A program made the translations under genes and the position numbers. DNA of 64,000 bases from Streptomyces sp. WP-1 (GTDB lineage: Bacteria > Actinomycetota > Actinomycetes > Streptomycetales > Streptomycetaceae). This document shows, piece after piece, positions 46,920 to 59,154 of this stretch; within the stretch, counting starts at the first letter, position 1; every line of letters begins with the position of its first letter. The notes beneath the pieces were generated by a model. That model ran no database searches. It had not been told where the DNA came from and saw nothing but the letters and a program-made list of their open reading frames with translations. Where the stretch lies: positions 1,798,001 through 1,862,000 of the forward strand of contig NZ_CP123923.1 of assembly GCF_030450125.1 (NCBI RefSeq), written 5' to 3'.

Positions 46920-48014
46920 TCATGCCCAGCGGCCCTGCTTGGCCCGCATCGCGGCCCGGCCCTCGGCGCCCTTGCGCTTCCAGTCGCGGCGGATCTCGGC
47001 GCGCAGGCGGGCGTCGGTCTTGGCCACGATCCACTGGTTCTCGCGGACCAGTTTGCGGTAGCTCTCCAGACGGCGGACGGGCAGTTCCCCGCCGTCCACG
47101 GCGGCGCGCACCGCGCAGCCGGGTTCGCTCTCGTGGGCGCAGTCGTGGAAGCGGCACCGCTCGGCCAGTTCCTCGATCTCGGCGAACACCTGTCCGACCC
47201 CGCTCTCGGCGTCGTACAGGCCGACCCCGCGCAGCCCCGGGGTGTCGATCAGGACCCCGCCGCCGGGCAGGGCGAGCAGGTTGCGGGTGGTCGTGGTGTG
47301 CCGCCCCTTGCCGTCGACGTCCCGGGCGGCCCGTACGTCCATCACGTCCTCGCCGATCAGCGCGTTGGCCAGGGTGGACTTGCCCGCACCGGACTGGCCG
47401 AGCAGGACGGAGGTGCCGCCGCCGACGAGGGCGCGCAGGACGTCGAGGCCGTCGCCGCAGTGGGCGCTGACGCCGAGCACGGGTACGCCGGGCGCGGTGT
47501 TCTCCACGTCCCGCACGAGGTGGGACAGGGTGACCGGGTCGGTCACCAGGTCGGCCTTGGTGAGCACGACCACGGGCTGCGCCCCGGACTCCCACGCGAG
47601 GGCGAGGAAGCGTTCGACGCGGCCGAGATCGAGGTCGACGGCGAGGGACACGGCGACGACGGCGTGGTCGACGTTGGCCGCGAGGATCTGTCCGTCGGAC
47701 CGCTTGGAGGAGGTGGACCGCACGAAGGCGGTGCGGCGCGGCAGATACGCCCGGACGTATGGGGGGTTGCCGCCCTCCTCGACGGCGACCCAGTCGCCGG
47801 TGCAGACGACCCGCATGGGGTCGTGGGGGGTGACGAACGCGGTGTCGGCGCGGACGGTCCCGCCGGCGGTGACCACGTCGCACTGGCCGCGGTCGACCCG
47901 GACCACCCGGCCGGGCAGCAGGCCTTCGGTGGCGTACGGGGTGAACGCGTCGGCCCATTCGTCGTCCCAGCCGTAGGGGGCCAGGGCGGAGTACACAGCG
48001 GAGCTGGAAGTCAA
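46920..48014 (-). CDS. rsgA: ribosome small-subunit GTPase RsgA
   Basis: A 364-residue circularly permuted GTPase that helps 30S subunit maturation. An OB-fold N-terminus (GRVVRVDRGQCDVVTAGGTV) is followed by G4 VVVLTKADLV, G1 VLLGQSGAGKSTLANALIGE (P-loop), G3 IDTPGLRGVGLYD, and a C-terminal zinc site CRFHDCAHESEPGCAVRAAV. Order G4-G5-G1-G2-G3 is diagnostic. The apparent start is TTG 48014 (MTSSSAVYSA) with GAAGGG at 7 nt. A 23-codon ORF with a perfect ribosome site lies 57 nt upstream on the same transcript. Confidence 0.95.
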   Translation of the reverse strand: MTSSSAVYSALAPYGWDDEWADAFTPYATEGLLPGRVVRVDRGQCDVVTAGGTVRADTAFVTPHDPMRVVCTGDWVAVEEGGNPPYVRAYLPRRTAFVRSTSSKRSDGQILAANVDHAVVAVSLAVDLDLGRVERFLALAWESGAQPVVVLTKADLVTDPVTLSHLVRDVENTAPGVPVLGVSAHCGDGLDVLRALVGGGTSVLLGQSGAGKSTLANALIGEDVMDVRAARDVDGKGRHTTTTRNLLALPGGGVLIDTPGLRGVGLYDAESGVGQVFAEIEELAERCRFHDCAHESEPGCAVRAAVDGGELPVRRLESYRKLVRENQWIVAKTDARLRAEIRRDWKRKGAEGRAAMRAKQGRWA

Positions 48015-48071
48015 GGGAGACCCTTCGGGGGGTGGCCCCGGGCGGGAGCGGTCGTCAGCGACGCGCTCGGG

Positions 48072-48143
48072 TCAGCCGGTGGCCACGGAGGCGGACTCGG
48101 GGAGTTCCTGGATGCGGGCGGCGCCCGGCACAGTGACAGCCAT
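48072..48143 (-). CDS. 23-residue ORF with perfect Shine-Dalgarno, rsgA leader
   Basis: ATG 48143 follows AAGGAGGTG, a full match to the 16S tail, at ideal spacing. It reads 23 codons to TGA 48074-48072. The peptide starts MAVTVPGAARIQ and ends ASVATG. It ends 57 nt before the TTG start of rsgA. Candidate promoter: -35 TGGCAC (48235-48240) and -10 TAGGGT (48212-48217), 17-nt spacer, minus strand. It could be a leader peptide controlling rsgA or an independent small protein. Confidence 0.55.
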   Translation of the reverse strand: MAVTVPGAARIQELPESASVATG

Positions 48144-48214
48144 CGTCGACACCTCCTTCCGCTTCTTCCGCGCTCGAACGTCGGCGGCCCTCGCCGCACG
48201 ACGTGATCATCACC

Positions 48215-48667
48215 CTAGGACGGCACGGCCGCGTGTGCCACCGAATTGACGCGCTCCGGCCGACAGGCCGTGGCGGCGAGCCGTCGCACCTCCTCGTCCA
48301 GCGCCATGCCCCGCGGGCCGCCCCCGCCGCAGAGCCGTTCGGCGCGGTCGCGGTACGCGCGCAACAGCGGTGCGAAGGACCGGACTTCGGGCCCCAGGTC
48401 GGTGAGTGCGCGCAGGGCGGCCAGTTCGACCGGGGGTCGCGGCGCCGGGGCCGGGGTGGGCCCCGTCAGGCAGCGGGCCGGCGCGGACCGCAGCGCGGGG
48501 ACCGGCAGCGCGTCCGCCCAGGGGACGGTGTCGAGGCCGGCGAGAGGCACCGGATCGGCTATCGCGGATTCTCCTTCGGGGCTCTTGATTGACAACGCTG
48601 TCGTCCGCGATCCTGTAACACGAATTTGAACGTTCGGTTTCGGGGGCGAGTCCGGTGAGTATGCCAT
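48215..48667 (-). CDS. hypothetical protein at the edge of the accessory region
   Basis: A 150-residue protein from ATG 48667 (GAGGTGG at 8 nt). The N-terminal ~45 residues (MAYSPDSPPKPNVQIRVTG...) have lower GC than the rest. The middle is Pro/Ala-rich (LTGPTPAPAPRPPVELAALR), then a helical, charged end (VRSFAPLLRAYRDRAERLCG, then DEEVRRLAATACRPE). I do not recognise a family. Divergent from the 49.1-54.6 kb operon. It could be a small regulator or just an accessory gene. Confidence 0.45.
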   Translation of the reverse strand: MAYSPDSPPKPNVQIRVTGSRTTALSIKSPEGESAIADPVPLAGLDTVPWADALPVPALRSAPARCLTGPTPAPAPRPPVELAALRALTDLGPEVRSFAPLLRAYRDRAERLCGGGGPRGMALDEEVRRLAATACRPERVNSVAHAAVPS

Positions 48668-48692
48668 GACGGCGGCCACCTCGAATCATCAC

Positions 48693-48704
48693 CGATCATG
48701 ATCG
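48693..48704. promoter_or_regulatory. 12-bp palindrome in the divergent intergenic region
   Basis: CGATCATGATCG is a perfect 12-bp palindrome 26 bp upstream of the minus-strand gene start at 48667. The surrounding 48600-48850 is noticeably less GC-rich than the rest of the window. Possible operator. Confidence 0.4.
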
Positions 48705-48869
48705 ATACCAGAGCAAATTGAGTCTTGGACGACCCGTGCGCCGATGCTGGACTTGACGCGTGACGCACCACGCAGGCCAAACACCCCCGACGGCGACGGT
48801 ATATGGAAAGTAAATTTCTTCTGCCAATTCGGCGCGATATAAGGATGGCCACCGGCTGCCATCTCCACC

Positions 48870-48899
48870 TTGCACTTCCCGCGCCGGGACGGCTAGCAT
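48870..48899 (+). promoter_or_regulatory. promoter for the five-gene operon
   Basis: -35 TTGCAC (48870-48875) and -10 TAGCAT (48894-48899) with an 18-bp spacer. A start near 48906 would give a 5' leader of about 210 nt before ATG 49117. Within the leader a small hairpin GATGG-AAT-CCATC occurs at 49060-49072. 48668-48869 shows no credible gene. Confidence 0.55.
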
Positions 48900-49116
48900 C
48901 CATTCCGCCCACGGGGGCCCGGCCGGCGAAGTGACTACGCATTGACGGCGCGTCCGGAATTCTCGAACGAATCAATCAGGAATCAGGGCAACGGGGGACG
49001 GGGGAAATCGACACCATGTGTCACTTATCTGCTGACACCGACTTTTCGCTGCGGTGCACGATGGAATCCATCATTCTCGCTCCCCGCCGCCACCTCGGAC
49101 AGTCAACGGAGGAGAC

Positions 49117-50052
49117 ATGGTCACCAATCTCGATGTGACGCTGCGAGACGGGGGATACCGCAACAACTTCGGCTTCACCCTCGAATACGCCCTGGAGCAC
49201 GCCCGGGAGAGCGTCGCGGCCGGAATCGAATGGGTGGAGATCGGCTACCGCAAGGGGTCCTTCCAGCCCAAGCCCGACCTGGGGCTGACGGGCACGGGCG
49301 CCGACGACTACATACGGGCCATGGCCGAGGTCATACCGCCCGAGCGGATCTGCATGATCCTGCACCCGAAGAACATCGAGGACGACGACCTCACCCAGAT
49401 GTACGAGGCCGGCGTACGGCTCGTACGGTTCTGCCTGCCGTCCACGACGCCCGAGCCCGGTCTCGCCGTGCTCCGCAAGGCGGCGGACCTCGGCTTCACC
49501 ACCACCGTGAACATCACCCGCGTCAGCCAGCTCGACCGGCGGCGGCTCGTGGAACTGTCCGCGATGTCCGAGGACTCGGGCGCGGACGTGATCTACCTGG
49601 CCGACTCCAACGGCAGTCTGCTGCCGGACGAGGTCTCCCGCCTGGTCACCCTGGTGCGCTCGGTGACCCGCGCCGAGATAGGCCTGCACGCGCACAACAA
49701 CCTGGGCCTGGCGCTCGCCAACTCCATCGCGGCGGTCGACGCGGGTGCCACCTGGATCGACTCCTCGGTCCTCGGCATGGGCAAGGGCCCCGGCAACCTG
49801 ATCACCGAGCAGTGGCTCGCCTACCTGGGCCGCGCCGGGCACACCGACCGGTACGACCTCGGGCGGATCCTCACCCTCGCGCACCGCATGGAGTCCGAGA
49901 TCGCCGAGGCGAGACCCTCGCTGCCGCTGCCCGACCTGGTCCTCGGCCACTTCGACCTCTCCGTCGAGGAGCGCGCCAAGCTGCCCGTGGACCACATGGG
50001 CGCCGCCTTCAGCGCGGCGCGCGAGCTGACCAGCCCGGTGGTCGCGGCATGA
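49117..50052 (+). CDS. DRE-TIM (HMGL-like) aldolase
   Basis: A 311-residue TIM-barrel metalloenzyme of the DRE-TIM family. It begins with LDVTLRDGGYRNNFGFTLEY (catalytic Arg and metal Asp in LRD), then GIEWVEIGYRKGS. The two metal His are in EIGLHAHNNLGLALANSIAA (HxHNN), with GADVIYLADSNGSLLPDEV before. The C-terminus LGMGKGPGNLITEQWLAYLG is like 4-hydroxy-2-oxovalerate aldolases rather than the long acyl-CoA synthases; there is no LeuA dimer domain. It probably cleaves or makes a C-C bond at a 2-oxo acid. ATG 49117 follows GGAGGAG. First gene of the operon; ATGA overlap with the next. Substrate unknown. Confidence 0.85.
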   Translation: MVTNLDVTLRDGGYRNNFGFTLEYALEHARESVAAGIEWVEIGYRKGSFQPKPDLGLTGTGADDYIRAMAEVIPPERICMILHPKNIEDDDLTQMYEAGVRLVRFCLPSTTPEPGLAVLRKAADLGFTTTVNITRVSQLDRRRLVELSAMSEDSGADVIYLADSNGSLLPDEVSRLVTLVRSVTRAEIGLHAHNNLGLALANSIAAVDAGATWIDSSVLGMGKGPGNLITEQWLAYLGRAGHTDRYDLGRILTLAHRMESEIAEARPSLPLPDLVLGHFDLSVEERAKLPVDHMGAAFSAARELTSPVVAA

Positions 50053-50870
50053 CCTCGCCGGCCGCGACACCCCTGCGGGCCCCGGTCGCCGTGCACCTGG
50101 GCGGGGCGGGCGCGCCCCGCACCGCCTGTGTGCTCGCGCCCGTCATGGCCCGCTGGGACCGGGGAGCCTTCTTCGAGCCGGTCGCCGAGGCGCTGGTGAC
50201 GACCGGCCACCGGGTGACGGTGTACGACACCCTGTCGCTGCTGCGCGACGGGGACGACCTCGGGCTCCTCGCCGACCGGTGGGCGGGGGTCCTGCGCGCC
50301 GAGGAGCCCGACGTCCTGGTGGGCAACGCCCTGGGCGGCGCCGTCGTCCAGCAACTGCTCGACCAGCCGTGGACGCACCGGGCCGACGTCGTCCTGCTGT
50401 CCTCCCCCACGGTCGCCGACGGGACGCTCGACGCGACCCTGGAGCGCATCGCGGCGGCCGTGGCCGAGCGGGGCACAGCCGCCGCGCTCGACCTGCTGCA
50501 CGAGGTGGTCCGCGGCCCGGCGGACCCCGCGCCCCTACCGGCCCCGGCCGGCCCCCGGGACACCCCGGACAGCGGGCGGGACGGCGCCGACGACCCGCTG
50601 TCCGGCCGGCGCCTGGCCACCGGTCTGCGCCTGCTGCACCGCGCCGATCTGCGCGACCGCGTCGAGGCGTTCCCGGGCAGACTGCTGCACGTCTACGGCA
50701 CCGAGTCGAACCTCGTGGGCGAGCGGCACCTCGCAACCGGCCCCGGGCACAACGGCGTCGGCATTCCAGGGGCGGGCATGCGCCCCCACGCCGACCAGCC
50801 GGAGGCCACCCGGCGGGCCGTCGCCGCGTTCCTGGCACCACAGCAACAGAAGAGGATCCATGACCAGTAA
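50049..50870 (+). CDS. alpha/beta-hydrolase-like protein lacking the nucleophile
   Basis: A 273-residue protein. Layout is that of a small alpha/beta hydrolase: RTACVLAPVMARWDRGAFFE near the start, GHRVTVYDTL, then VLVGNALGGAVVQQLLDQPW at 89-108, and a C-terminal LLHVYGTESNLVGERHLA ... GVGIPGAGMRPHADQPEAT. The elbow is G-N-A-L-G (92-96), with Ala where the catalytic Ser is expected (GNSLGG is usual). H at PHADQPEATR may be the remaining His. It may be a binding or partner protein, or work by another mechanism. Translationally coupled at both ends (ATGA upstream, 11-nt overlap downstream). Confidence 0.65.
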   Translation: MTSPAATPLRAPVAVHLGGAGAPRTACVLAPVMARWDRGAFFEPVAEALVTTGHRVTVYDTLSLLRDGDDLGLLADRWAGVLRAEEPDVLVGNALGGAVVQQLLDQPWTHRADVVLLSSPTVADGTLDATLERIAAAVAERGTAAALDLLHEVVRGPADPAPLPAPAGPRDTPDSGRDGADDPLSGRRLATGLRLLHRADLRDRVEAFPGRLLHVYGTESNLVGERHLATGPGHNGVGIPGAGMRPHADQPEATRRAVAAFLAPQQQKRIHDQ

Positions 50871-53064
50871 GACCGTCGCAGTACTTCCCGGCGATGGCAT
50901 CGGCCCCGAGGTACTCGATGCGGCCCTCCCGGTGATCGACGCCCTCGGGCTGCCCATCACCCTCGAACACGGCGACATCGGCTGGGAGTTCTGGCGCACC
51001 GAGGGCACCCCGGTGCCGCAGCGCACTTGGGACCTGATCGGCCGCAGCGACGCGGTGCTGCTCGGCGCCACCACCAGCAAGCCGGGACGCGAGGCCCTGG
51101 CCGACCTGGCACCGCACCTGCGTGAGCAGGCCCCGCAGTACGTGTCGCCGATCATCCAACTGCGCCAGCGCCTCGACCTGTTCGCCAATCTCCGGCCGGT
51201 CGAGAGCTACCTGGGCGGCACCCCGTACCGCTTCTGCGTGGTGCGCGAGAACACCGAGGGTCTGTACGCGGGCCTCGACTGGGACCAGGTGCCCGAGCAG
51301 ATGTGGCCGCTCGTCGCGGACCACCCCAACGCGCGGATCAGCGGCCGCGAGGCCACCACCGCGAGCGTGCGGATGCTCACCCGGCACGGCCTCGACCGCA
51401 TCCTGCGCTACGCCTTCGAGCACGCCCGCGCCCACGGGCACGGCCGGGTCACCCTCGCGGACAAGCCGAACGTGCTGCGGCGCAGCAGCGCCTACGCCCG
51501 CGAGCGCCTGGAGGAGATCGCCGCGGACTACCCGGAGATCGAGTACGAGATCCTCAACGTGGACGCGGTCGCGCTGTGGATGGCGCGCCGCCCGGAGCGC
51601 TTCGGGGTCATCGTCGCCGAGAACATGTTCGGCGACATCCTGTCCGACCTCGGCGGCGGGGTGATGGGCGGCCTCGGCCTCGCGCCCAGCGCCAACATCG
51701 GGGAGAACGGCAACTACTTCGAGCCGGTGCACGGCAGCGCCCCCGCCCTCGCCGGGACCGGCCGGGCCAACCCGCTCGCCGCCTTCCTCACCGTCGGCCT
51801 GCTCCTCGAACACCTCGGCTTCGGCGAGGCCGCCGGGCAGGTCCGGGACGCGGTCTCGCATGTCACGCGCCGCCGGGACCGGGTGACGTACGACCTGGGC
51901 GGTACGGCGACCACCGCCGAGTGCGCCGCGTCCGTGCTGGACGCCTGCCGTGCCGTGCCGCGCGTCCACACCGCGGCCGTCGTCACCGTCGGGGACGAGC
52001 TGCTGCGGGCGGTACTGGAGGACAGCAACGCGGGCGAGGCGTCCCGCAGGCTGGCCGCCCGTGCCGTACCGGTCCGCGTCCGGCACACCGTCGGTGACGA
52101 CGAGGCGGCGATCGCGGACGCCGTGCGCTCCTGCCTCGGCCGCGACGACGTGGTCGTGGTGATGGGCGGTCTCGGCCCCACCTCGGACGATGTGACCCGG
52201 GTCGGGGTGGCCCGCGCCGTCGGCCGGCCGCTGGAGCACCGCGAGGAGGCGTGGCAGGGCGTCGTCGAGCGGCTCACCCGCTTCGGGGTCGCCGTCCACG
52301 AGGACAACCGCCGCCAGGCGCAGTTCCCCGAGGGCGCCGAACTGCTGCCCAACACCAACGGCACCGCCTGGGGCTGCCGCCTCGATGTGCAGGGCACCAC
52401 CGTGGTGATGCTCCCCGGCCCGCCGCGCGAGTGCCTGCCGATGCTCGACGCCTTCCTGCGCGACGGCATCGCCCACCTCCCCGAACCGGAGCCCGTCGTC
52501 ACGGTGTTCCGCCGTACCCTCGGGGTCATCGAGGCGGACGCCGCCGCCGCGGTGGACGCCCTGGTGCGGGACCTGGGGCTGCGGGTCAAGCCCGCCTACC
52601 GCTGGCACTACCCCTACGTGGACGTCCGGATCGACTGCCCGCCGCAGAGCGCGGCGGAGCTGGCGAAGCGGCTGGACGACGCGCTCGGCGCGTACGTCGT
52701 CACCAGCAGGGAGCGCACCGCCGTCCAGGAGCTCGCCGAGCTGCTGGACACGCGTGGCCTGGGTCTGGAGGCCGAGGACCGGGTCACCGGCGGCCGGTTC
52801 GCCGCCGAACTGGCCGCCGAGCGGCGGCCGGCCGAGGACCGGGAGCCGTCCGGCCGGGTGTCCGTGACGCTGGACGCGGCCTGGGACGGCGGCGGCCCGC
52901 AGGATCACACCGGCACCGTCCGCCTCCGGTGCGCGGTGCGGGACGGGGCGCGGGAGCGCACCGGCGAGCTGACCGTCCCCAACCGGGGTCCCGAAGTCCT
53001 CGGGTACGCCGGACAGTTCGCCGCCTGGACCATCGCCCGTCAGCTCGTGGAGGAGACCGTATGA
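50860..53064 (+). CDS. LeuB/isocitrate-type dehydrogenase fused to CinA
   Basis: A 734-residue two-part protein. Residues 1-350 are a beta-decarboxylating dehydrogenase of the LeuB/IcdH family: AVLPGDGIGPEVLDAALPVI, YRFCVVRENTEGLYAGLDWD (Tyr), TLADKPNVLRRSSAYARERL (Lys), ENMFGDILSDLGGGVMGG (metal Asp pair), EPVHGSAPALAGTGRANPLA (NAD site). Residues about 365-734 are CinA-like: AAVVTVGDELLRAVLEDSNA, DDVVVVMGGLGPTSDDVTRV and LPGPPRECLPMLDAFLRDGI, then a CinA C-terminal domain in which the catalytic-Ser motif AESCTGG reads AEDRVTGG, so the deamidase site is probably dead. No stop separates them. I know of no such fusion. ATG 50860 follows AGAGGATCC. Confidence 0.9.
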   Translation: MTSKTVAVLPGDGIGPEVLDAALPVIDALGLPITLEHGDIGWEFWRTEGTPVPQRTWDLIGRSDAVLLGATTSKPGREALADLAPHLREQAPQYVSPIIQLRQRLDLFANLRPVESYLGGTPYRFCVVRENTEGLYAGLDWDQVPEQMWPLVADHPNARISGREATTASVRMLTRHGLDRILRYAFEHARAHGHGRVTLADKPNVLRRSSAYARERLEEIAADYPEIEYEILNVDAVALWMARRPERFGVIVAENMFGDILSDLGGGVMGGLGLAPSANIGENGNYFEPVHGSAPALAGTGRANPLAAFLTVGLLLEHLGFGEAAGQVRDAVSHVTRRRDRVTYDLGGTATTAECAASVLDACRAVPRVHTAAVVTVGDELLRAVLEDSNAGEASRRLAARAVPVRVRHTVGDDEAAIADAVRSCLGRDDVVVVMGGLGPTSDDVTRVGVARAVGRPLEHREEAWQGVVERLTRFGVAVHEDNRRQAQFPEGAELLPNTNGTAWGCRLDVQGTTVVMLPGPPRECLPMLDAFLRDGIAHLPEPEPVVTVFRRTLGVIEADAAAAVDALVRDLGLRVKPAYRWHYPYVDVRIDCPPQSAAELAKRLDDALGAYVVTSRERTAVQELAELLDTRGLGLEAEDRVTGGRFAAELAAERRPAEDREPSGRVSVTLDAAWDGGGPQDHTGTVRLRCAVRDGARERTGELTVPNRGPEVLGYAGQFAAWTIARQLVEETV

Positions 53065-53762
53065 CCACCGCATCCGCCGACCCGCTGCTCGACAGCGAGC
53101 TGAGCGCACGCCTGGCCCGGCTGGACACGGCCGCCCTCTCCGACGCGCTGGACAGCCTGCGGGCCGCGCCGTTCGTGCTGCCCGGCATCGCCGCCCGCAC
53201 GCCTGGCAGCGTGGCCTTCGGGCCCGCGTTCACCCTGCGCTACCGGCCCGTCGAGGACGACGGCGCGTTCCACAACGCCGCCAACTACATCGACGACGTG
53301 CCGCCCGGCTCGGTCGTGGTCGCGGACAACGGCGGCACCGGCGCCTGCACCAACTGGGGTTCCCTGCTCACCTCGGTGGCGCTGCGCCGGGGCATCGCGG
53401 GCACCGTCGTGCACGGGGCCGTGCGCGACGTACGGGAGACCCGCGAGTCCGGGTACCCGCTGTTCAGCACCGCCGTCACCATGGTCAGCGGCAAGAACCG
53501 GGTGGTGCTCGACCGCACCGGTGTCGACCTGGACATCGCCGGCACCGTGGTCCGCCCCGGCGACCTGGTGTTCGCGGACGACAACGGGGCGCTGCGCGTC
53601 CCCGCCGACCTGGTCGACGAGGTCGTCCGGCGCGCCGAGGCCGTCGAGCGGACCGAGCGCCGCATCCGGGAGGCCGCGGCGGACGGTATCCGGCTGGACG
53701 AGGCGCGGGCCCGCTACGGCTACGCGCGCCCCTGGGAGGACGAGGGCCGTGACGACCACTGA
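53061..53762 (+). CDS. RraA-type aldolase (HMG/CHA aldolase family)
   Basis: A 233-residue RraA-fold protein. It begins ALSDALDSLRAAPFVLPGIA and carries the family core DNGGTGACTNWGSLLTSVAL, then GIAGTVVHGAVRDVRETRES (Arg and Asp that bind substrate and metal) and GYPLFSTAVT. Active members cleave 4-hydroxy-4-methyl-2-oxoglutarate or 4-carboxy-4-hydroxy-2-oxoadipate and decarboxylate oxaloacetate; true RraA only binds RNase E. The retained R-D and the metabolic neighbours favour the enzyme. ATGA overlap with the LeuB-CinA gene; GTG of the next gene overlaps its end by 14 nt. Confidence 0.85.
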   Translation: MTTASADPLLDSELSARLARLDTAALSDALDSLRAAPFVLPGIAARTPGSVAFGPAFTLRYRPVEDDGAFHNAANYIDDVPPGSVVVADNGGTGACTNWGSLLTSVALRRGIAGTVVHGAVRDVRETRESGYPLFSTAVTMVSGKNRVVLDRTGVDLDIAGTVVRPGDLVFADDNGALRVPADLVDEVVRRAEAVERTERRIREAAADGIRLDEARARYGYARPWEDEGRDDH

Positions 53763-54633
53763 ACCGCGGCCCGCGCCCGGCACCGGCCAGGCGGCGTTCG
53801 TGGACGTCCACTACCACGTCGGCCCGGACGCCTATGTGCGGCGGCACACCGCCACCACGGCCGGCGAGCAGTACGCCCGGCTCGGCGGCTGGGTGGTGCT
53901 GAAGAACCACCTGGGCTCCACCGCGGCCCAGGCGTGGGAGGCCCGTCAGCAGGGCCTGCCCGTGTCCGGTTCGATCGTGCTCAACGACATCGCGGGCGGC
54001 CTGGACACCCGGGCCGTGGAGCAGGCCGTCGTCCAGCACGGTGAGGACAGCGGGCTGCGCCTGATCGTCCATCTGCCGACGGTGACCGGGCGGACCCACA
54101 CGAGCCGGCTGTCCCGTACCCCGGCGCATCCGCTGCTGGCCCGGGACGGGCTGCGGCCGCTCACCGTCACGGACGGGGACGGCGCGCTCCGGCCCGAGGC
54201 GCGGGAGATCCTGCGCATGGCCCGGGACCTGCCGATCGTGATCTCCACCGGCCACGCCGACGGGCGCGAGGTGCTCCTGCTGGTCGAGGAGGCGGTACGG
54301 CTCGACGTGCCGCGGGTGATGCTCAATCAGCCGGCCAACCCGATGACCGGTCTGAGCTGCGCCGATCTGCTGGACATCGCCTCGGCGGAACAGGTGTACG
54401 CGGAGCAGACCGCGCTGACCCACCTGCTGGGCTACCAGGACTGGGACGACTTCTCCGCCGTCCTCGCCAAGGTGCCGCGCGCCCTCTACAGCTCCGATCT
54501 GGGGCAGACGTCCCAGATGGACATCGGGGAGTGGACGACACAGAGCCGGGACTGGTTCGCGAAGGCCGGTCTCGACGAGAGCCGGATCACGGAGGTCGTG
54601 CGGGACGCGCCGCTGAGGATGCTCAGCCTGTAG
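53749..54633 (+). CDS. DUF6282-like amidohydrolase-fold protein
   Basis: A 294-residue protein resembling DUF6282/amidohydrolase-like barrels. Near the N-terminus AAFVDVHYHVGPDAYVRRHT holds an HxH-type metal site; GGWVVLKNHLGST (Lys), LIVHLPTV, LPIVISTGHADGREVLLLVE (His), and a final Asp in LYSSDLGQTSQMDIGEW follow the order of beta-barrel metal hydrolases. Such proteins hydrolyse, hydrate or decarboxylate small acids. GTG 53749 follows GGAGG. Last gene of the operon, immediately before an 18-bp stem terminator. Reaction unknown. Confidence 0.72.
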   Translation: MTTTEPRPAPGTGQAAFVDVHYHVGPDAYVRRHTATTAGEQYARLGGWVVLKNHLGSTAAQAWEARQQGLPVSGSIVLNDIAGGLDTRAVEQAVVQHGEDSGLRLIVHLPTVTGRTHTSRLSRTPAHPLLARDGLRPLTVTDGDGALRPEAREILRMARDLPIVISTGHADGREVLLLVEEAVRLDVPRVMLNQPANPMTGLSCADLLDIASAEQVYAEQTALTHLLGYQDWDDFSAVLAKVPRALYSSDLGQTSQMDIGEWTTQSRDWFAKAGLDESRITEVVRDAPLRMLSL

Positions 54634-54656
54634 GGCGGCCGGTCCGAGCGAGTGTC

Positions 54657-54700
54657 AGCGCCCCGGGAGGGACCCGTACTGCGGTCCCTCCCGGGGCGCT
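54657..54700. terminator. 18-bp perfect stem, bidirectional
   Basis: AGCGCCCCGGGAGGGACC (54657-54674), 8-nt loop, then exact complement (54683-54700). It ends the five-gene operon and the LysR gene from the other side. One of the strongest hairpins here. Confidence 0.92.
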
Positions 54701-54727
54701 GCGCGTGCGGCGGGGTCCGTCAGGCGG

Positions 54728-55630
54728 TCAGGCGGACCCCATCGTCTTGCGGCGAACCCGCGCCGCCGTCTCGGTGAGCAGTTCCAGCCGCATCGGGTCC
54801 GCGTTCTCCGGCAGCGCGAGGAACATCCGCATGGTGATGGGCTCCCCGTCGAGCGGAAGCAGCGCGATCCGGCGGGAGGAGACCGTGTCGGCCGCCGTCG
54901 GGTACATCAGGGTCCAGCCGTCGCCGCTCGCGCCGATCTCGGCGAGGGTGTCCTGGAAACCCGTGAAGGGCGCACCGAAGGTGGGTTCGAAACCGGCCTT
55001 GCGGCAGGCGGCGACGACGGCGTCGTAGAGCGCCGGGTTCTCGCCGCGGGAGGCGATGCGCAGGGGAACTCCCGCCAGGTCGGCGAGGTTCAGGCTGGCG
55101 CGGCCGGACAGCGGGTGGGCGGCGGGGAGCGCGGCGACCAGGGGGTCGTACCAGAGGGTGAGCAGCCGCAGTCCGGGGGCGCTCTCGACGCCCCGCACGA
55201 AGGCGGCGTCCAGCCGGCCGGCCCGTACCTCCTCCAGGCGGTGGTGGGCGCCGAGGGTCTGGAACTCGAAGCGGGTGCCGGTCCCGGAGCCGGGCAGCGC
55301 GTCCAGGAAGTCGTCCAGGCGCTCGCCGAGGGCGGAGCTGATCCCGACGCGGAAGGTGGCGTCCTTCTGGGCGGCCAGCCGCTGGGCCTTGGCGGCGAAG
55401 GAGTCCAGCGCCTTCAGCAGTTGGCGGCCCTCGGGCAGCAGCGCCTGCCCGGCCGCGGTGAGCGTGACCGTGCGGCTGGAGCGGTCGAAGAGCTGGGTGC
55501 GCAGCTCCCGTTCCAGCCGGCGCACCTGCTGGCTGACCGCGGGCTGGCCGATGTGCAGCCGCTGCGCCGCCCTGCCGAAATGCAGTTCCTCCGCGACGGC
55601 GACGAAGTACTGGATCTGGCGCAGTTCCAC
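54728..55630 (-). CDS. LysR-type regulator
   Basis: A 300-residue LysR protein. wHTH: ELRQIQYFVAVAEELHFGRA, RLHIGQPAVSQQVRRLEREL. Effector domain from about 90 (FRVGISSALGERLDDFLDAL). GTG 55630 (VELRQIQYF) is preceded by GGGGG at suitable distance. It faces the end of the 49.1-54.6 kb operon and lies downstream, on the same strand, of the MFS exporter. It could control either or both; no clear T-N11-A dyad was found at 48.7-49.1 kb. Confidence 0.92.
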   Translation of the reverse strand: MELRQIQYFVAVAEELHFGRAAQRLHIGQPAVSQQVRRLERELRTQLFDRSSRTVTLTAAGQALLPEGRQLLKALDSFAAKAQRLAAQKDATFRVGISSALGERLDDFLDALPGSGTGTRFEFQTLGAHHRLEEVRAGRLDAAFVRGVESAPGLRLLTLWYDPLVAALPAAHPLSGRASLNLADLAGVPLRIASRGENPALYDAVVAACRKAGFEPTFGAPFTGFQDTLAEIGASGDGWTLMYPTAADTVSSRRIALLPLDGEPITMRMFLALPENADPMRLELLTETAARVRRKTMGSA

Positions 55631-55745
55631 AGGACCCCCCAATCCTCGACGGGCGGCCCTGTGATGGAAACTCAAATCAGCTCTGTTGATGAATAGATCG
55701 ATACAGGCTTCGGGGTCGCCGCAGAGGAATCCTCGCACACCTGAC

Positions 55746-55787
55746 GGCGGCCCCCGTACGCGCACCAGCGCGGTACGGGTGCCGCCG
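55746..55787 (-). terminator. hairpin after the MFS gene
   Basis: GGCGGC...CCCGTACGCGC (55746-55763) pairs with GCGCGGTACGGG...GCCGCC (55768-55787), with one bulge. It lies just past the MFS stop (55815, minus), so MFS and LysR may be separate transcripts. 55631-55745 probably holds the LysR promoter. Confidence 0.6.
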
Positions 55788-55814
55788 TCGTCGGTCGTAC
55801 GGCCCCATGTGGGC

Positions 55815-57110
55815 TTATTCCATGGCGGCTTCCTGGAGGTCGGCGGCCGGGCGGTCGGTCGGCCGCTCTCCGCCGTCGCGCACCGGCGCGGAGACGGGCA
55901 CGGGCGCCGTCGTCCGGGCGGCGAGCGACAGGAACAGGGCGAAGGCGCAGATGCCCAGCACCGCGGCGATCAGCACGAACCAGCCGAGGGCGAACAGGTC
56001 ACCGGCGGGCAGCCGGCTGGACAGGTAGATGCCCAGCGAGGCGGAGAGCAGCTGGAGCGCGCCCATCAGGCCCGACGCCGAACCGGCGGTGGCGCGGAAC
56101 GTGGTCACGCCCGCGCTCATCGACAGCGGCAGCAGGAAGCCGTTGCCGAACGTCATGACCGGCATGAAGACCAGCACCAGCAGACCCCAGCGGCCGCCGG
56201 CCCCGCTAAGCCCGAGGCCCAGCATCATCAGCGCGCCGACGAGGAAGAACCCGTGGCCCATCCACAGCAGCCGGTTGACGGACCGGGTGCGGACCAGGGC
56301 GCGCGAGGTGAGGTTGCCCGCGACGTAGGCGAGGGAGACGGTGATGTAGCAGTAGCTGGTGGTCTCGGTGGCCAGCCGCATCTTCTCGAACACCAGCGGG
56401 GAGGCCGCCAGGTAGCCGAAGTAACCGCCGTACGCCACGCACAGGTTGACCGTGTAGGCCCAGAACAGGGGGCGGGACAGCAGCTTCGGGTAGCCCTTGA
56501 GGGTGGCGCCCAGGTGCTTGCTGCGGCGCTCCGGCGGCAGGCTCTCGGGGATCGCGGTGATCATCGCGACCAGGGTCACCAGGCCGATCGCCGCGGTGAC
56601 CACGAACGGCGCGCGCCAGGAGACGTAGGTCGTCAGATAGCCGCCGATCAGCGGGGCGACGGACGGGGAGACACCGACGATCGGCATGACCGTGGCGAAC
56701 ATCCGGGCCGCGTCCTTCTCCTCGTACAGGTCGCTGATCACGGCCCGGCCGAGCACCATGCCCGAACCGGCGCCGAGCGCCTGGAGGAGCCGGCTCGCGC
56801 CGAACACCTCGACCGTGGGCGCCGCGGCGCACACCAGGGAGGCGAGGACGAACAGGCCGAGCCCGGAGACGATGACGCGCTTACGGCCGTACGCGTCGGA
56901 TATGGGCCCGTAGACCGCCTGCGAGACCGCGATGCCGATCATGAACGCGCTGAACGTCCACTGCACCGACGCGACCGGGGTGTGGAAGGCGTGCGCGGTG
57001 GCCGGCACGCCCGGCAGGTTGATGTCGGAGGCGAACAGGCCACCCGCGTTCAGCGAGGACAGGACGGCGAGCAACAGCGCGTAGGGGGTGCGTGTCGTTG
57101 CGGTCTTCAT
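55815..57110 (-). CDS. MFS transporter, Bcr/CflA drug-resistance type
   Basis: A 431-residue, 12-TM major facilitator. Motif A is AVYGPISDAYGRKRVIVSGL (GxxxDxxGRK), with the Bcr/CflA start YALLLAVLSSLNAGGLFASD and INLPGVPATAHAF. LLQALGAGSGMVLGRAVISD is the TM4-5 motif C-like region of drug:H+ antiporters. It likely exports a small polar compound, possibly a product or toxic intermediate of the facing operon. ATG 57110 is used, with AAGGAAG 12 nt before (slightly far). Both ends have hairpins. Confidence 0.9.
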   Translation of the reverse strand: MKTATTRTPYALLLAVLSSLNAGGLFASDINLPGVPATAHAFHTPVASVQWTFSAFMIGIAVSQAVYGPISDAYGRKRVIVSGLGLFVLASLVCAAAPTVEVFGASRLLQALGAGSGMVLGRAVISDLYEEKDAARMFATVMPIVGVSPSVAPLIGGYLTTYVSWRAPFVVTAAIGLVTLVAMITAIPESLPPERRSKHLGATLKGYPKLLSRPLFWAYTVNLCVAYGGYFGYLAASPLVFEKMRLATETTSYCYITVSLAYVAGNLTSRALVRTRSVNRLLWMGHGFFLVGALMMLGLGLSGAGGRWGLLVLVFMPVMTFGNGFLLPLSMSAGVTTFRATAGSASGLMGALQLLSASLGIYLSSRLPAGDLFALGWFVLIAAVLGICAFALFLSLAARTTAPVPVSAPVRDGGERPTDRPAADLQEAAME

Positions 57111-57159
57111 GGCACGTGGCAACTTCCTTGGTCAAGACTCGTGTCGACCGAAAGGGGAA

Positions 57160-57201
57160 GCCGTTCCCGGGCGAAACGGGGGATGTGCGCCCGGGAACGG
57201 C
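57160..57201 (-). terminator. 14-bp stem between tautomerase and MFS genes
   Basis: GCCGTTCCCGGGCG (57160-57173) and CGCCCGGGAACGGC (57188-57201) pair perfectly around a 14-nt loop. It would end the tautomerase transcript on the minus strand, or attenuate read-through into the MFS gene. Confidence 0.8.
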
Positions 57202-57224
57202 GGCTCGGGTGTCGGCCCCTGGGT

Positions 57225-57422
57225 TCAGCGCTTGGCGGCGCGGGCGGCCAGCGTCTCACCGGCGATGGACCAGCTGTCGGTGGCGATCTCCTGCACGGTC
57301 ACCCAGACGCTCTCCGGCTTGCTGCCGGTGGCCTTGACGTACGCGTCGGTGAGCTCGCGGACCAGCTCGGCCTTCTGCTCGGCGGTCTTGCCGGGGGTCT
57401 GCTGCACGTGGATGAGAGGCAT
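57225..57422 (-). CDS. 4-oxalocrotonate tautomerase family protein
   Basis: A 65-residue protein. It begins Met-Pro-Leu-Ile-His-Val; Pro2 becomes the catalytic N-terminal base after Met removal. Length and pattern (PGKTAEQKAELVRELTDAYV, VWVTVQEIATDSWSIAGETL) match 4-OT enzymes (62-65 residues). They tautomerise 2-hydroxymuconate and related dienols. Active-site Arg11 and Arg39 of the classical enzyme are replaced (Gly/Lys near 11, VQE region), so the substrate may differ. ATG 57422 follows AGGAG. Upstream is a 15-bp palindrome. It stands alone between hairpins. Confidence 0.9.
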   Translation of the reverse strand: MPLIHVQQTPGKTAEQKAELVRELTDAYVKATGSKPESVWVTVQEIATDSWSIAGETLAARAAKR

Positions 57423-57548
57423 CGCGTTCTCCTGGATCGAGGTCGCGCCGATGGCGCGCGGTCCGCGGCCGGTTCGGCCGGGATCCGCAGTGGACCCAGT
57501 CCAGCACCGGACCAGGGGCCGTCCAAGACGCAATACGCTCTGAGAACG

Positions 57549-57563
57549 ATCACGACTCGTGAT
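57549..57563. promoter_or_regulatory. 15-bp palindrome upstream of the tautomerase gene
   Basis: ATCACGA-C-TCGTGAT is a perfect dyad 127-141 bp upstream of the tautomerase ATG. 57423-57639 otherwise has no gene. Looks like a TetR/MarR- or GntR-type operator; the regulator is not known. Confidence 0.5.
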
Positions 57564-57639
57564 ACGTCCAGGTGAGACGGCCGTACGACAGCTCGTCAGG
57601 TAGAGACCAGTGGCCCCCGGGAAGGGGGCGGCGCGGCGG

Positions 57640-59154
57640 CTACGCGCAGCGCCGGCCGTTGAGCGTGAAGACGTCCGGGGCGCGGTCGGCGCCGGTCCAG
57701 GTGCCGGTGAAGCCGAAGGACACGGCGGTGCGGGCCGGGACGGCCCGGTCGTAGGCGGCGGCGGTGGCGGTGACCCGGGAACCGTGCTGCCGGGCGGTGA
57801 CGTCCCAGATCCGGCCGATCCGCTGGCCGTCCGGGAACGTCCAGTCGACCCGCCATCCGTCCAGGGCCCGCTCGGCGGTGACGGTGACGGTGGCCTGGAA
57901 GCCGCCGGACCACTGGCTGACGAGGTCGTAGACGACCCGGCAGGACGACGACGGCGGGGCGGCCGGGCGGACCGGCACGCCCACCGGGCCGTGGGCCAGG
58001 GAGGAGAAGGCCCTGGGCGGGGAGTCGGGGGCGGGCTCGGGCCTCGTACGGCCGAGGTCCCGGCCGCCCTGACCGGCGGGCACCCGCGCGGAGGCGGACG
58101 GGCCCGCGGGCGCCGGATCCGGGGCGGAGGTCGGTTCACGACCGGACGTCGACTTCCACTCGGACTTCGGGGTCGGCCTCGGGGTCGGTGTCGGGGTCGG
58201 CGAGGAGCCCGCGACGGTGGGGCGGGTGCCGCCCCGGCCGCCGCCCCGGGTGGCGGCGCCGTGGCCGGACGTACCGCTGTCGTCGGGTGCCGCGGTGTCG
58301 TCGCGGGTGGCGGCGGTGTCGTCCCGGGCGGTGAAGGAGTCCGCGCCCGAACCGCCGGGGGCCATGAGCGAGACGCCCAGTGCCGTCGCCGACAGCAGCA
58401 GGGCGGTGGCGAACATCCCGCCGCCGCGCAGCAGCCGCCTGAGCCCCGGGCGCTCCTCGGGTTCACCCCTGGGGGCCTCCCCCGCCCGGCCGGTCCCGGC
58501 CCGGGCCTCGGCGGACCGCCGGCGCCGCTCCAGATAGTCGAGCCCGCCCCAGCCGAGCACCCCGCCCGCCAGTACGGCGGCCAGCCCCGCGCTCTCGGGC
58601 TCCGGGGCGTCACCCCGGGCGCGCCGCCAGCGCTCCCGGAACAGCGCCCGGACCCGGTCGAGTTCGGTCCGGGCGGTGGCCGGGTCCAGACCGAGCCGGT
58701 GCGCCGCCGCGGGCAGCGGCAGGGCCTCCACCTCGGCCAGCCACAGCAGCGCCGCGTCCGTCCCGCCGAGGTCGCGCAGGGCCCGCAGCGCCGGTGGATG
58801 GGCACGGGGCGAGCCGGTGAGGCGGGACGCCTCGGGCGAGGTCAGCCACTGGGGAAGGCCAGGGGCGAGCAGCCGGCCCTGGCCCGCGGCCGACCAGCCG
58901 GCGGCGGTGGCGCGCACGGCGGTGAGCAGGGCCGGGATCGTGGGCAGCCGGGCGGGGCGGCGGCCCGCGCCGCGCACATGGGTGCGACCGGCGGCGCGGA
59001 CCTCGCGCATGCCGAGGGTGAACGCCTCGGTGGCCAGCCGGTGGGCGGTGGCGGAACCGGAGGCGCACAGGGCGGCGTACGAGAGCACCGCGTCCCAGGA
59101 CTCCGAGAACAGCGCGGCCTCGGCGTCGTCCTGAGGGGTCGGCAGGTCGGGCAT
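57640..59154 (-). CDS. sigma-like N-terminus, one TM, CBM2 C-terminus
   Basis: A 504-residue protein. Residues 10-55 (DDAEAALFSESWDAVLSYAA, LATEAFTLGMREVR) and 120-178 (ALRALRDLGGTDAALLWLAE, LPAAAHRLGLDPATARTELD, RVRALFRERW) follow the order of ECF sigma regions 2 and 4, though region 2 is poor. A Gly/Arg linker leads to one TM (about 245-265, GGMFATALLLSATALGVSLM). A Pro/Thr linker (SPTPTPTPRPTPKSEW) leads to a family-2 carbohydrate-binding module (about 403-504; CRVVYDLVSQWSGGFQATVT, GWRVDWTFPDG, VFTLNGRRCA, with terminal Cys). Similar transmembrane ECF-CBM2 fusions (ECF52-like) exist in Streptomyces; no zinc-finger anti-sigma motif was seen here. Confidence 0.7.
   Translation of the reverse strand: MPDLPTPQDDAEAALFSESWDAVLSYAALCASGSATAHRLATEAFTLGMREVRAAGRTHVRGAGRRPARLPTIPALLTAVRATAAGWSAAGQGRLLAPGLPQWLTSPEASRLTGSPRAHPPALRALRDLGGTDAALLWLAEVEALPLPAAAHRLGLDPATARTELDRVRALFRERWRRARGDAPEPESAGLAAVLAGGVLGWGGLDYLERRRRSAEARAGTGRAGEAPRGEPEERPGLRRLLRGGGMFATALLLSATALGVSLMAPGGSGADSFTARDDTAATRDDTAAPDDSGTSGHGAATRGGGRGGTRPTVAGSSPTPTPTPRPTPKSEWKSTSGREPTSAPDPAPAGPSASARVPAGQGGRDLGRTRPEPAPDSPPRAFSSLAHGPVGVPVRPAAPPSSSCRVVYDLVSQWSGGFQATVTVTAERALDGWRVDWTFPDGQRIGRIWDVTARQHGSRVTATAAAYDRAVPARTAVSFGFTGTWTGADRAPDVFTLNGRRCA

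What the first reader, a model, noticed from the sequence alone, without database searches (positions are those of the whole stretch)
49117..54633. Five-gene operon that looks like an undescribed oxo-acid pathway
Five plus-strand genes overlap by 4 to 14 nt and form one unit: DRE-TIM aldolase, serine-less alpha/beta-hydrolase-like protein, LeuB-CinA fusion, RraA-type aldolase and a DUF6282-like metal hydrolase. A promoter (48870-48899) leads and an 18-bp stem ends it. Aldolase plus decarboxylating dehydrogenase plus a second aldolase resembles parts of meta-cleavage or malate-homologue chain chemistry, but no pathway I know has this set. The facing MFS exporter and 4-OT tautomerase might belong, suggesting synthesis or breakdown of a branched hydroxy-oxo acid. 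The proposed chemistry is inference.
Basis: partly seen in the sequence, partly recalled or inferred. Interest (0 to 1): 0.85.

Follow-up and report, generated by a model that had tools for sequence, protein, structure and literature searches.

The report
Travelling five-enzyme oxo-acid gene cassette
Five overlapping bacterial genes form a real, unnamed enzyme team that recurs together in soil, plant-associated and intracellular bacteria and has apparently moved between distant groups; it probably builds (or possibly breaks down) a small organic acid that has not been identified.

Summary
'Never together' fails: all five lie together in 13 of 13 Streptomyces genomes holding a close relative of this DUF6282 gene, of 392 searched, and in 25 of 25 such Legionellaceae genomes (of 112) the aldolase lies about 3.4 kb away. 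The set also occurs in Pseudomonas, Burkholderia, Actinopolyspora and, partly decayed, Bartonella. One Pseudomonas groups with actinobacterial forms in four of five trees. Here operon, LysR regulator, efflux-family transporter and tautomerase form one 9.6-kb islet; 7 of 15 same-genus loci show the site empty. The dehydrogenase is fused to RraA in 11 of 33 non-redundant loci, elsewhere to CinA, never both. The 'hydrolase' lacks its catalytic histidine in all 35 rows, its serine in 26. Best reading: a mobile cassette making and exporting a small hydroxy/oxo acid; catabolism is a serious rival. Substrate and product are unknown.

The parts
48015..57639 (.). Islet: whole cassette between rsgA (46920-48014, -) and the gene at 57640-59154 (-)
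   Evidence: In 7 of 15 same-genus loci rsgA and the 57640-59154 orthologue are direct neighbours (gap about 220-300 bp)
49117..50052 (+). ald: DRE-TIM (HMGL-like) metallo-aldolase, 311 aa
   Evidence: PF00682 112.5 bits; R10-D11 and H191-A-H193 invariant in the 21-sequence alignment and apart from the truncated L074; closest solved 3dxi, 1nvm
50049..50870 (+). abh: alpha/beta-hydrolase fold, catalytic Ser and His replaced, 273 aa
50860..51945 (+). Isocitrate/isopropylmalate-dehydrogenase domain (residues 1-362)
   Evidence: PF00180 270.2 bits; motifs
51967..53064 (+). CinA N-terminal (MoCF_biosynth) domain of the fusion; C-terminal deamidase domain not recognised
   Evidence: PF00994 97 bits; CinA motifs kept; 4ct8 match
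53061..53762 (+). rraA: RraA/HMG-aldolase-like, 233 aa
   Evidence: PF03737 115.9 bits; 3k4i 197.6 bits; G..RD motif kept in all rows
53749..54633 (+). DUF6282: amidohydrolase-superfamily fold, 294 aa
54656..54701 (.). terminator-like hairpin between convergent operon and lysR
   Evidence: z -6.1
54728..55765 (-). LysR-type regulator
   Evidence: PF00126/PF03466; orthologue beside the operon in 8 of 10 CinA-type Streptomyces loci
55815..57122 (-). Bcr/CflA-family efflux MFS transporter
   Evidence: TIGR00710 239.6 bits, cut-off 200.9; 8 of 10; a relative also flanks the P. kilonensis L027 and Bartonella forms
57225..57422 (-). 4-oxalocrotonate-tautomerase-like, 65 aa
   Evidence: PF01361 60.6 bits; 7 of 10

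Best explanation
It is a horizontally mobile metabolic cassette. Its core (aldolase, pseudo-hydrolase, beta-decarboxylating dehydrogenase, RraA, DUF6282) works as one enzyme chain on small hydroxy/oxo di- or tricarboxylic acids. Proposed order (inferred): the aldolase joins pyruvate or another 2-oxo acid to an aldehyde or oxo acid, giving a 4-hydroxy-2-oxo acid. The dehydrogenase oxidises and decarboxylates a 3-substituted malate whose side group is not held by the carboxylate-binding residues of isocitrate or homoisocitrate dehydrogenases. RraA, physically fused to the dehydrogenase in a third of relatives, acts directly on its 2-oxo-acid product by aldol cleavage or decarboxylation. DUF6282 hydrolyses or hydrates a cyclic (lactone-type) intermediate. 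The pseudo-hydrolase, using two invariant arginines, catalyses a non-hydrolytic step such as decarboxylation or isomerisation. In this genome the product is probably tautomerised by the 4-OT protein and exported by the Bcr/CflA transporter under LysR control. Shown: unit, recurrence, fusions, islet, residue losses. Inferred: every reaction, the direction (synthesis) and export.
For: Five genes together on one strand in 13 of 13 Streptomyces with a close DUF6282 relative (of 392). Aldolase beside DUF6282 in 25 of 25 positive Legionellaceae (of 112). Concordant distances for 26 loci plus the window, r 0.81-0.98, 0 of 2000 permutations. Dehydrogenase-RraA fusion in 11 of 33 non-redundant loci with both genes. 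Islet includes exporter and tautomerase; the transporter is above an efflux-family cut-off, and relatives flank the P. kilonensis and Bartonella forms. RimK-like ATP-grasp genes adjoin the aldolase in 5 of 7 Legionella loci examined (Pfam on two), a ligase type that fits synthesis. No importer or ring-cleaving enzyme among the islet proteins scanned. Dehydrogenase positions 98 and 99 are aliphatic in 42 of 43 rows, where isocitrate and homoisocitrate dehydrogenases align Asn or Arg (role of those residues recalled). A related aldolase-RraA pair occurs in an aminotransferase/ATP-grasp cluster (L019-L021).
Against: No substrate or product is known. LysR control and several canonical DUF6282 genes in catabolic-looking neighbourhoods (mostly read by eye) favour breakdown. 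Both aldolase types run readily in the cleavage direction (recalled). 14 of 39 aldolase-positive Legionellaceae lack the DUF6282 relative; L050 has no abh in the DNA held; L117 and L026 lack the LysR/MFS/4-OT neighbours in the DNA held, so neither core nor accessories are fixed. Concordant distances partly reflect shared species history; DUF6282 is the least concordant; branch supports were not examined.
Confidence: 0.5

Rival explanations
1. Catabolic or detoxifying cassette: DUF6282 opens a lactone or hydrates an unsaturated acid, the dehydrogenase decarboxylates, and RraA and the aldolase cleave the resulting 4-hydroxy-2-oxo acids to pyruvate plus a small carbonyl compound; the MFS protein handles the substrate or a toxic intermediate.
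For: LysR neighbour and 4-OT. TcuA-like (tricarballylate-dehydrogenase-related) genes in L018, L025, L032 and L038, and nitronate-monooxygenase relatives in L018, L032, L038 and six proteobacterial loci (Pfam/NCBIfam on some). Luciferase-like monooxygenase plus flavin reductase in P. corrugata L033 and, by eye, Burkholderia paludis L035. Several canonical DUF6282 genes beside beta-keto-acid-cleavage-like, aldolase-like or RraA genes (for RraA; by eye).
Against: No importer in the islet; the transporter scores over an efflux-family cut-off; ATP-grasp neighbours in Legionella; rare, patchy presence (13 of 392 Streptomyces; 10 of 249 Pseudomonas, at least two of them known positives beforehand).
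Confidence: 0.35
2. Metabolite-repair or protection module: the dehydrogenase-CinA fusion and partners dispose of a damaged cofactor or dead-end carboxylate, and the MFS protein expels it.
For: CinA-type domain (nucleotide-processing; function recalled). In Bartonella L030 and L031 the fusion frame is open and CinA motifs are intact although dehydrogenase residues R129 and Y136 are lost.
Against: In Bartonella L049 and L048 the same gene carries in-frame stops, so selection to keep CinA is not general. CinA is absent from type-B and Legionella forms. Core presence is patchy, unlike housekeeping repair.
Confidence: 0.07
3. Chance assembly or annotation artefact: five unrelated genes that happen to sit together.
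For: None found.
Against: Recurrent order, fusions and concordant distances across phyla.
Confidence: 0.01

Closest known systems
Protocatechuate 4,5-cleavage lower pathway (LigI/LigJ/LigK/LigU; pathway recalled)
   Different: No ring-cleaving dioxygenase; extra dehydrogenase, second aldolase and pseudo-hydrolase; RraA far below the LigK/PcmE cut-off (76 vs 304.5)
4-hydroxy-2-oxovalerate aldolase (BphI/DmpG) of meta-cleavage pathways
   Same: Fold family, R-D and HxH metal site
   Different: 144.5 bits against a cut-off of 286; the DmpG His21 position (role recalled) is Tyr except in the Legionella loci; no partner aldehyde dehydrogenase in the islet
NAD-dependent beta-decarboxylating dehydrogenases (isocitrate, homoisocitrate, isopropylmalate, tartrate)
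   Same: Family and catalytic Arg/Tyr/Lys/Asp motifs
   Different: Below every curated cut-off listed; side-group pocket aliphatic; fused to CinA or RraA in many loci
Aldolase-RraA cluster with haem-oxygenase-like enzyme (L019-L021)
   Same: Aldolase 33-36% and RraA 40-46% identical, same strand, a few kb apart
   Different: Class IV aminotransferase, Haem_oxygenas_2, CP_ATPgrasp, MR_MLE enolase and M81 peptidase instead of abh, idh and DUF6282 (Pfam on L019 and L021 proteins)

Membership tests
HMGL-like DRE-TIM metallolyase | Pfam PF00682 above cut-off and metal motif R-D / HxH | tested here: met
   112.5 vs 29 bits
4-hydroxy-2-oxovalerate aldolase (TIGR03217) | curated equivalog cut-off 286 bits | tested here: not met
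   144.5 bits
3-isopropylmalate / isocitrate / homoisocitrate / tartrate dehydrogenase | curated subfamily cut-offs | tested here: not met
   best 291.2 vs 540 (AksF2), LeuB 206.1 vs 353.2
Isocitrate/isopropylmalate dehydrogenase superfamily | PF00180 and conserved catalytic residues | tested here: met
   270.2 vs 27 bits; R102, R112, R129, Y136, K202, D235, D259, D263 present in the window; lost only in Bartonella rows (roles recalled)
CinA | full CinA (TIGR00200) cut-off and C-terminal deamidase domain | tested here: not met
   128.3 vs 243.15 bits; only MoCF_biosynth found
RraA-like | PF03737 and G-x..-R-D motif | tested here: met
   115.9 vs 24.5 bits
HMG/CHA aldolase (LigK/PcmE) | equivalog cut-off 304.5 bits | tested here: not met
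   76 bits
DUF6282 | PF19799 cut-off | tested here: met
   178.8 vs 26.8 bits
Alpha/beta hydrolase superfamily | fold | tested here: met
Catalytic alpha/beta hydrolases | Ser-His catalytic pair | tested here: not met
   Ala94; Met244 at the expected His position by alignment and strand order in the model
Meta-cleavage pathway | ring-cleaving dioxygenase and acylating aldehyde dehydrogenase nearby | tested here: not met
   none among the islet proteins scanned; the rest of the genome was not searched for them
Leucine-type chain elongation | acyl-CoA synthase plus aconitase-type isomerase plus dehydrogenase in the unit | tested here: not met
   no isomerase among the islet proteins scanned
Any enzyme named above | catalytic activity | not testable with these tools
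   needs purified enzyme

The most novel reading that the evidence does not exclude
A previously undescribed pathway for a small, exported or amide-linked hydroxy/oxo acid, built around a fused beta-decarboxylating dehydrogenase/RraA and a serine- and histidine-less alpha/beta-hydrolase, is shared by Streptomyces, plant-associated Pseudomonas and intracellular Legionella and Bartonella through transfer between phyla, with type-specific tailoring enzymes giving different end products.
Probability: 0.4. Interest if true: 0.8.

Novelty: new variant of a known kind. Interest (0 to 1): 0.62.

Why it matters
A recurrent five-enzyme team with no known product, kept by soil bacteria and by intracellular bacteria with small genomes, points to a metabolite worth handling in very different settings. 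The fusions and lost catalytic residues make specific reactions testable, and the islet gives a clean unit to delete or move.

Tried and rejected
Rejected: meta-cleavage pathway, leucine-type elongation and chance assembly (see Membership tests and rivals). An isocitrate- or homoisocitrate-type substrate is disfavoured by the aliphatic pocket residues. Methylketone synthase 1 (an Ala-His-Asn triad, recalled) looked like a lead for the abh but matched only at E 0.45, and the His is not kept here. Literature: 10 searches gave no paper on this set; only search listings were seen, plus reference-list passages of PMC11345546. That 3k4i is a Pseudomonas syringae protein is recalled. Promoter scan: no support. 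VIA-align was a second look at Foldseek's own matches, not a search. The residue table was mis-numbered by one at four positions and is not used; one search gives the right ones.

Duplicates were left out of trees and but are. L074 was dropped from the trees for a short, broken gene. L036 (abh missed by tblastn but present as an ORF), L026 and L034 (cut by contig ends), L037 and L044 (no DUF6282 found), L050 (no abh) and the seven other Bartonella loci were not in the trees.
Full report
Observation. Pfam gives HMGL-like, nothing for the second protein, Iso_dh plus MoCF_biosynth, RraA-like and DUF6282. A very stable hairpin lies between the operon and the convergent lysR gene. The proposed promoter was not recovered. 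The window is a stretch of a 7.6-Mb single-contig genome; that it is Streptomyces is inferred from its closest named relatives.

Co-occurrence. Thirty of them, L023-L051 and L074, carry at least one further gene of the set or its transporter (tblastn E <= 1e-5); in four Bartonella loci (L029, L030, L031, L049) this is essentially the transporter alone. The other 50 showed only the dehydrogenase, apart from a weak rraA match in L066 and ald match in L095. Among 392 Streptomyces genomes 13 have a close relative of this DUF6282 protein (E <= 1e-20), and all 13, the window included, have all five genes on one strand. In Legionellaceae 25 of 112 genomes have the DUF6282 relative and 39 the aldolase. 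All 25 are among the 39, and in each the two genes lie on the same contig and strand with starts 3.29-3.55 kb apart; the three genes between were not checked in these 25. Fourteen have the aldolase without DUF6282, as in L037 and L044. In Pseudomonas 10 of 249 genomes have the gene, at least two of them known positives beforehand. The unit is rare and patchy, but its members travel together. More distant DUF6282 genes (24-32% identical) occur elsewhere without the set.

Architectures. Type A (window, S. griseofuscus and relatives, P. kilonensis L027, Bartonella) has the dehydrogenase fused to a CinA-type domain, usually with a Bcr/CflA transporter beside it. Of 10 other non-redundant CinA-type Streptomyces loci, 8 have LysR and MFS orthologues beside the operon and 7 the tautomerase; L026 and L117 have none in the DNA held, and the L119 stretch held may be too short for the tautomerase. 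Type B lacks CinA. L018 and L032 add nitronate-monooxygenase, YCII/ABM-type and TcuA-like FAD-enzyme genes, and L038 nitronate-monooxygenase and TcuA-like genes (Pfam on L018 and the L032 TcuA-like protein). P. corrugata L033 adds a luciferase-like monooxygenase and flavin reductase and ABM-type and nitronate-monooxygenase relatives; B. paludis L035 looks the same by eye. Of seven Legionella loci, five have an ATP-grasp gene next to the aldolase (L037, L040, L043, L044, L046, by eye; RimK-like by Pfam in L044 and L046); L036 does not, and L039 begins too close to its contig end. The annotated L. adelaidensis record shows the core in the same order after a hypothetical protein that was not scanned. 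Of 35 loci holding both dehydrogenase and RraA (33 without duplicates), 11 have them fused in one frame; no locus has both kinds of fusion.

Descent. Distance matrices of the five proteins from 26 loci plus the window correlate at r 0.81-0.98 (0 of 2000 permutations as high for each of ten pairs). P. kilonensis groups with the actinobacterial forms, not with the other Pseudomonas, in the ald, abh, idh and rraA trees, but not in the DUF6282 tree; trees were midpoint-rooted and branch supports not examined. With its CinA fusion and transporter this suggests transfer between phyla. The permutation test does not remove shared species history. Flanking genes match in G003 and S. griseofuscus on both sides and in G366 on the right; the other Streptomyces loci tested showed no match to six flank proteins in the DNA held. 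Of 15 other same-genus loci found with the right-hand gene, 7 have rsgA as its immediate neighbour with about 220-300 bp between, against 9.6 kb here; one (G003) has the cassette; in 7 no rsgA was seen in the up to 1500 bases fetched. Gain versus loss was not resolved.

Interpretation. The fusion of dehydrogenase and RraA is the strongest mechanistic clue: the 2-oxo acid left after oxidation and decarboxylation should be the RraA substrate. Efflux-family transporter, ATP-grasp neighbours, absence of an importer and patchy transfer favour synthesis of a small acid. LysR, the 4-OT, TcuA-like or monooxygenase partners and the catabolic-looking neighbourhoods of several ordinary DUF6282 genes (by eye) favour breakdown. 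I put synthesis and export at 0.5 and catabolism at 0.35. No reaction has been shown.

Novelty. Ten searches of the open PMC library found no paper on this gene set; most subscription papers are not held there, and the large protein database was not available. The enzymes belong to known families, but no core protein reached the cut-off of any NCBIfam model listed; the team is a new variant of a known kind of metabolic cassette.

Noticed in passing
L030, L031, L049, L048 (Bartonella), dehydrogenase-CinA gene: In L030, L031 and L049 aldolase, rraA and DUF6282 are not found by tblastn and dehydrogenase residues R129 and Y136 are lost, while CinA motifs are intact; the frame is open in L030 and L031 but L049 and L048 carry in-frame stops. 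In five Bartonella genomes searched the fusion is the only match to the N-terminal part of CinA.
   Followed up: partly
L019, L020, L021: A different actinobacterial cluster pairs a related aldolase with RraA, plus Haem_oxygenas_2, class IV aminotransferase, CP_ATPgrasp, MR_MLE enolase and M81 peptidase (Pfam on L019 and L021 proteins only).
   Followed up: partly
L037, L040, L043, L044, L046 upstream of the aldolase: ATP-grasp genes adjoin the core in five Legionella loci; L040 appears to have three (by eye; RimK-like by Pfam in L044 and L046).
   Followed up: partly
L185 (NZ_LR134433.1): A Legionella adelaidensis record labelled plasmid carries eno, ftsB, pal and queE beside the cassette and may be chromosomal.
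   Followed up: no
window 48215-48679 (-): A 154-aa ORF inside the islet without Pfam match; only fragments are recognisable in L023 and L125, so it may not be a gene.
   Followed up: no
L074 (Bartonella tribocorum): All five genes are recognisable but several are broken.
   Followed up: no
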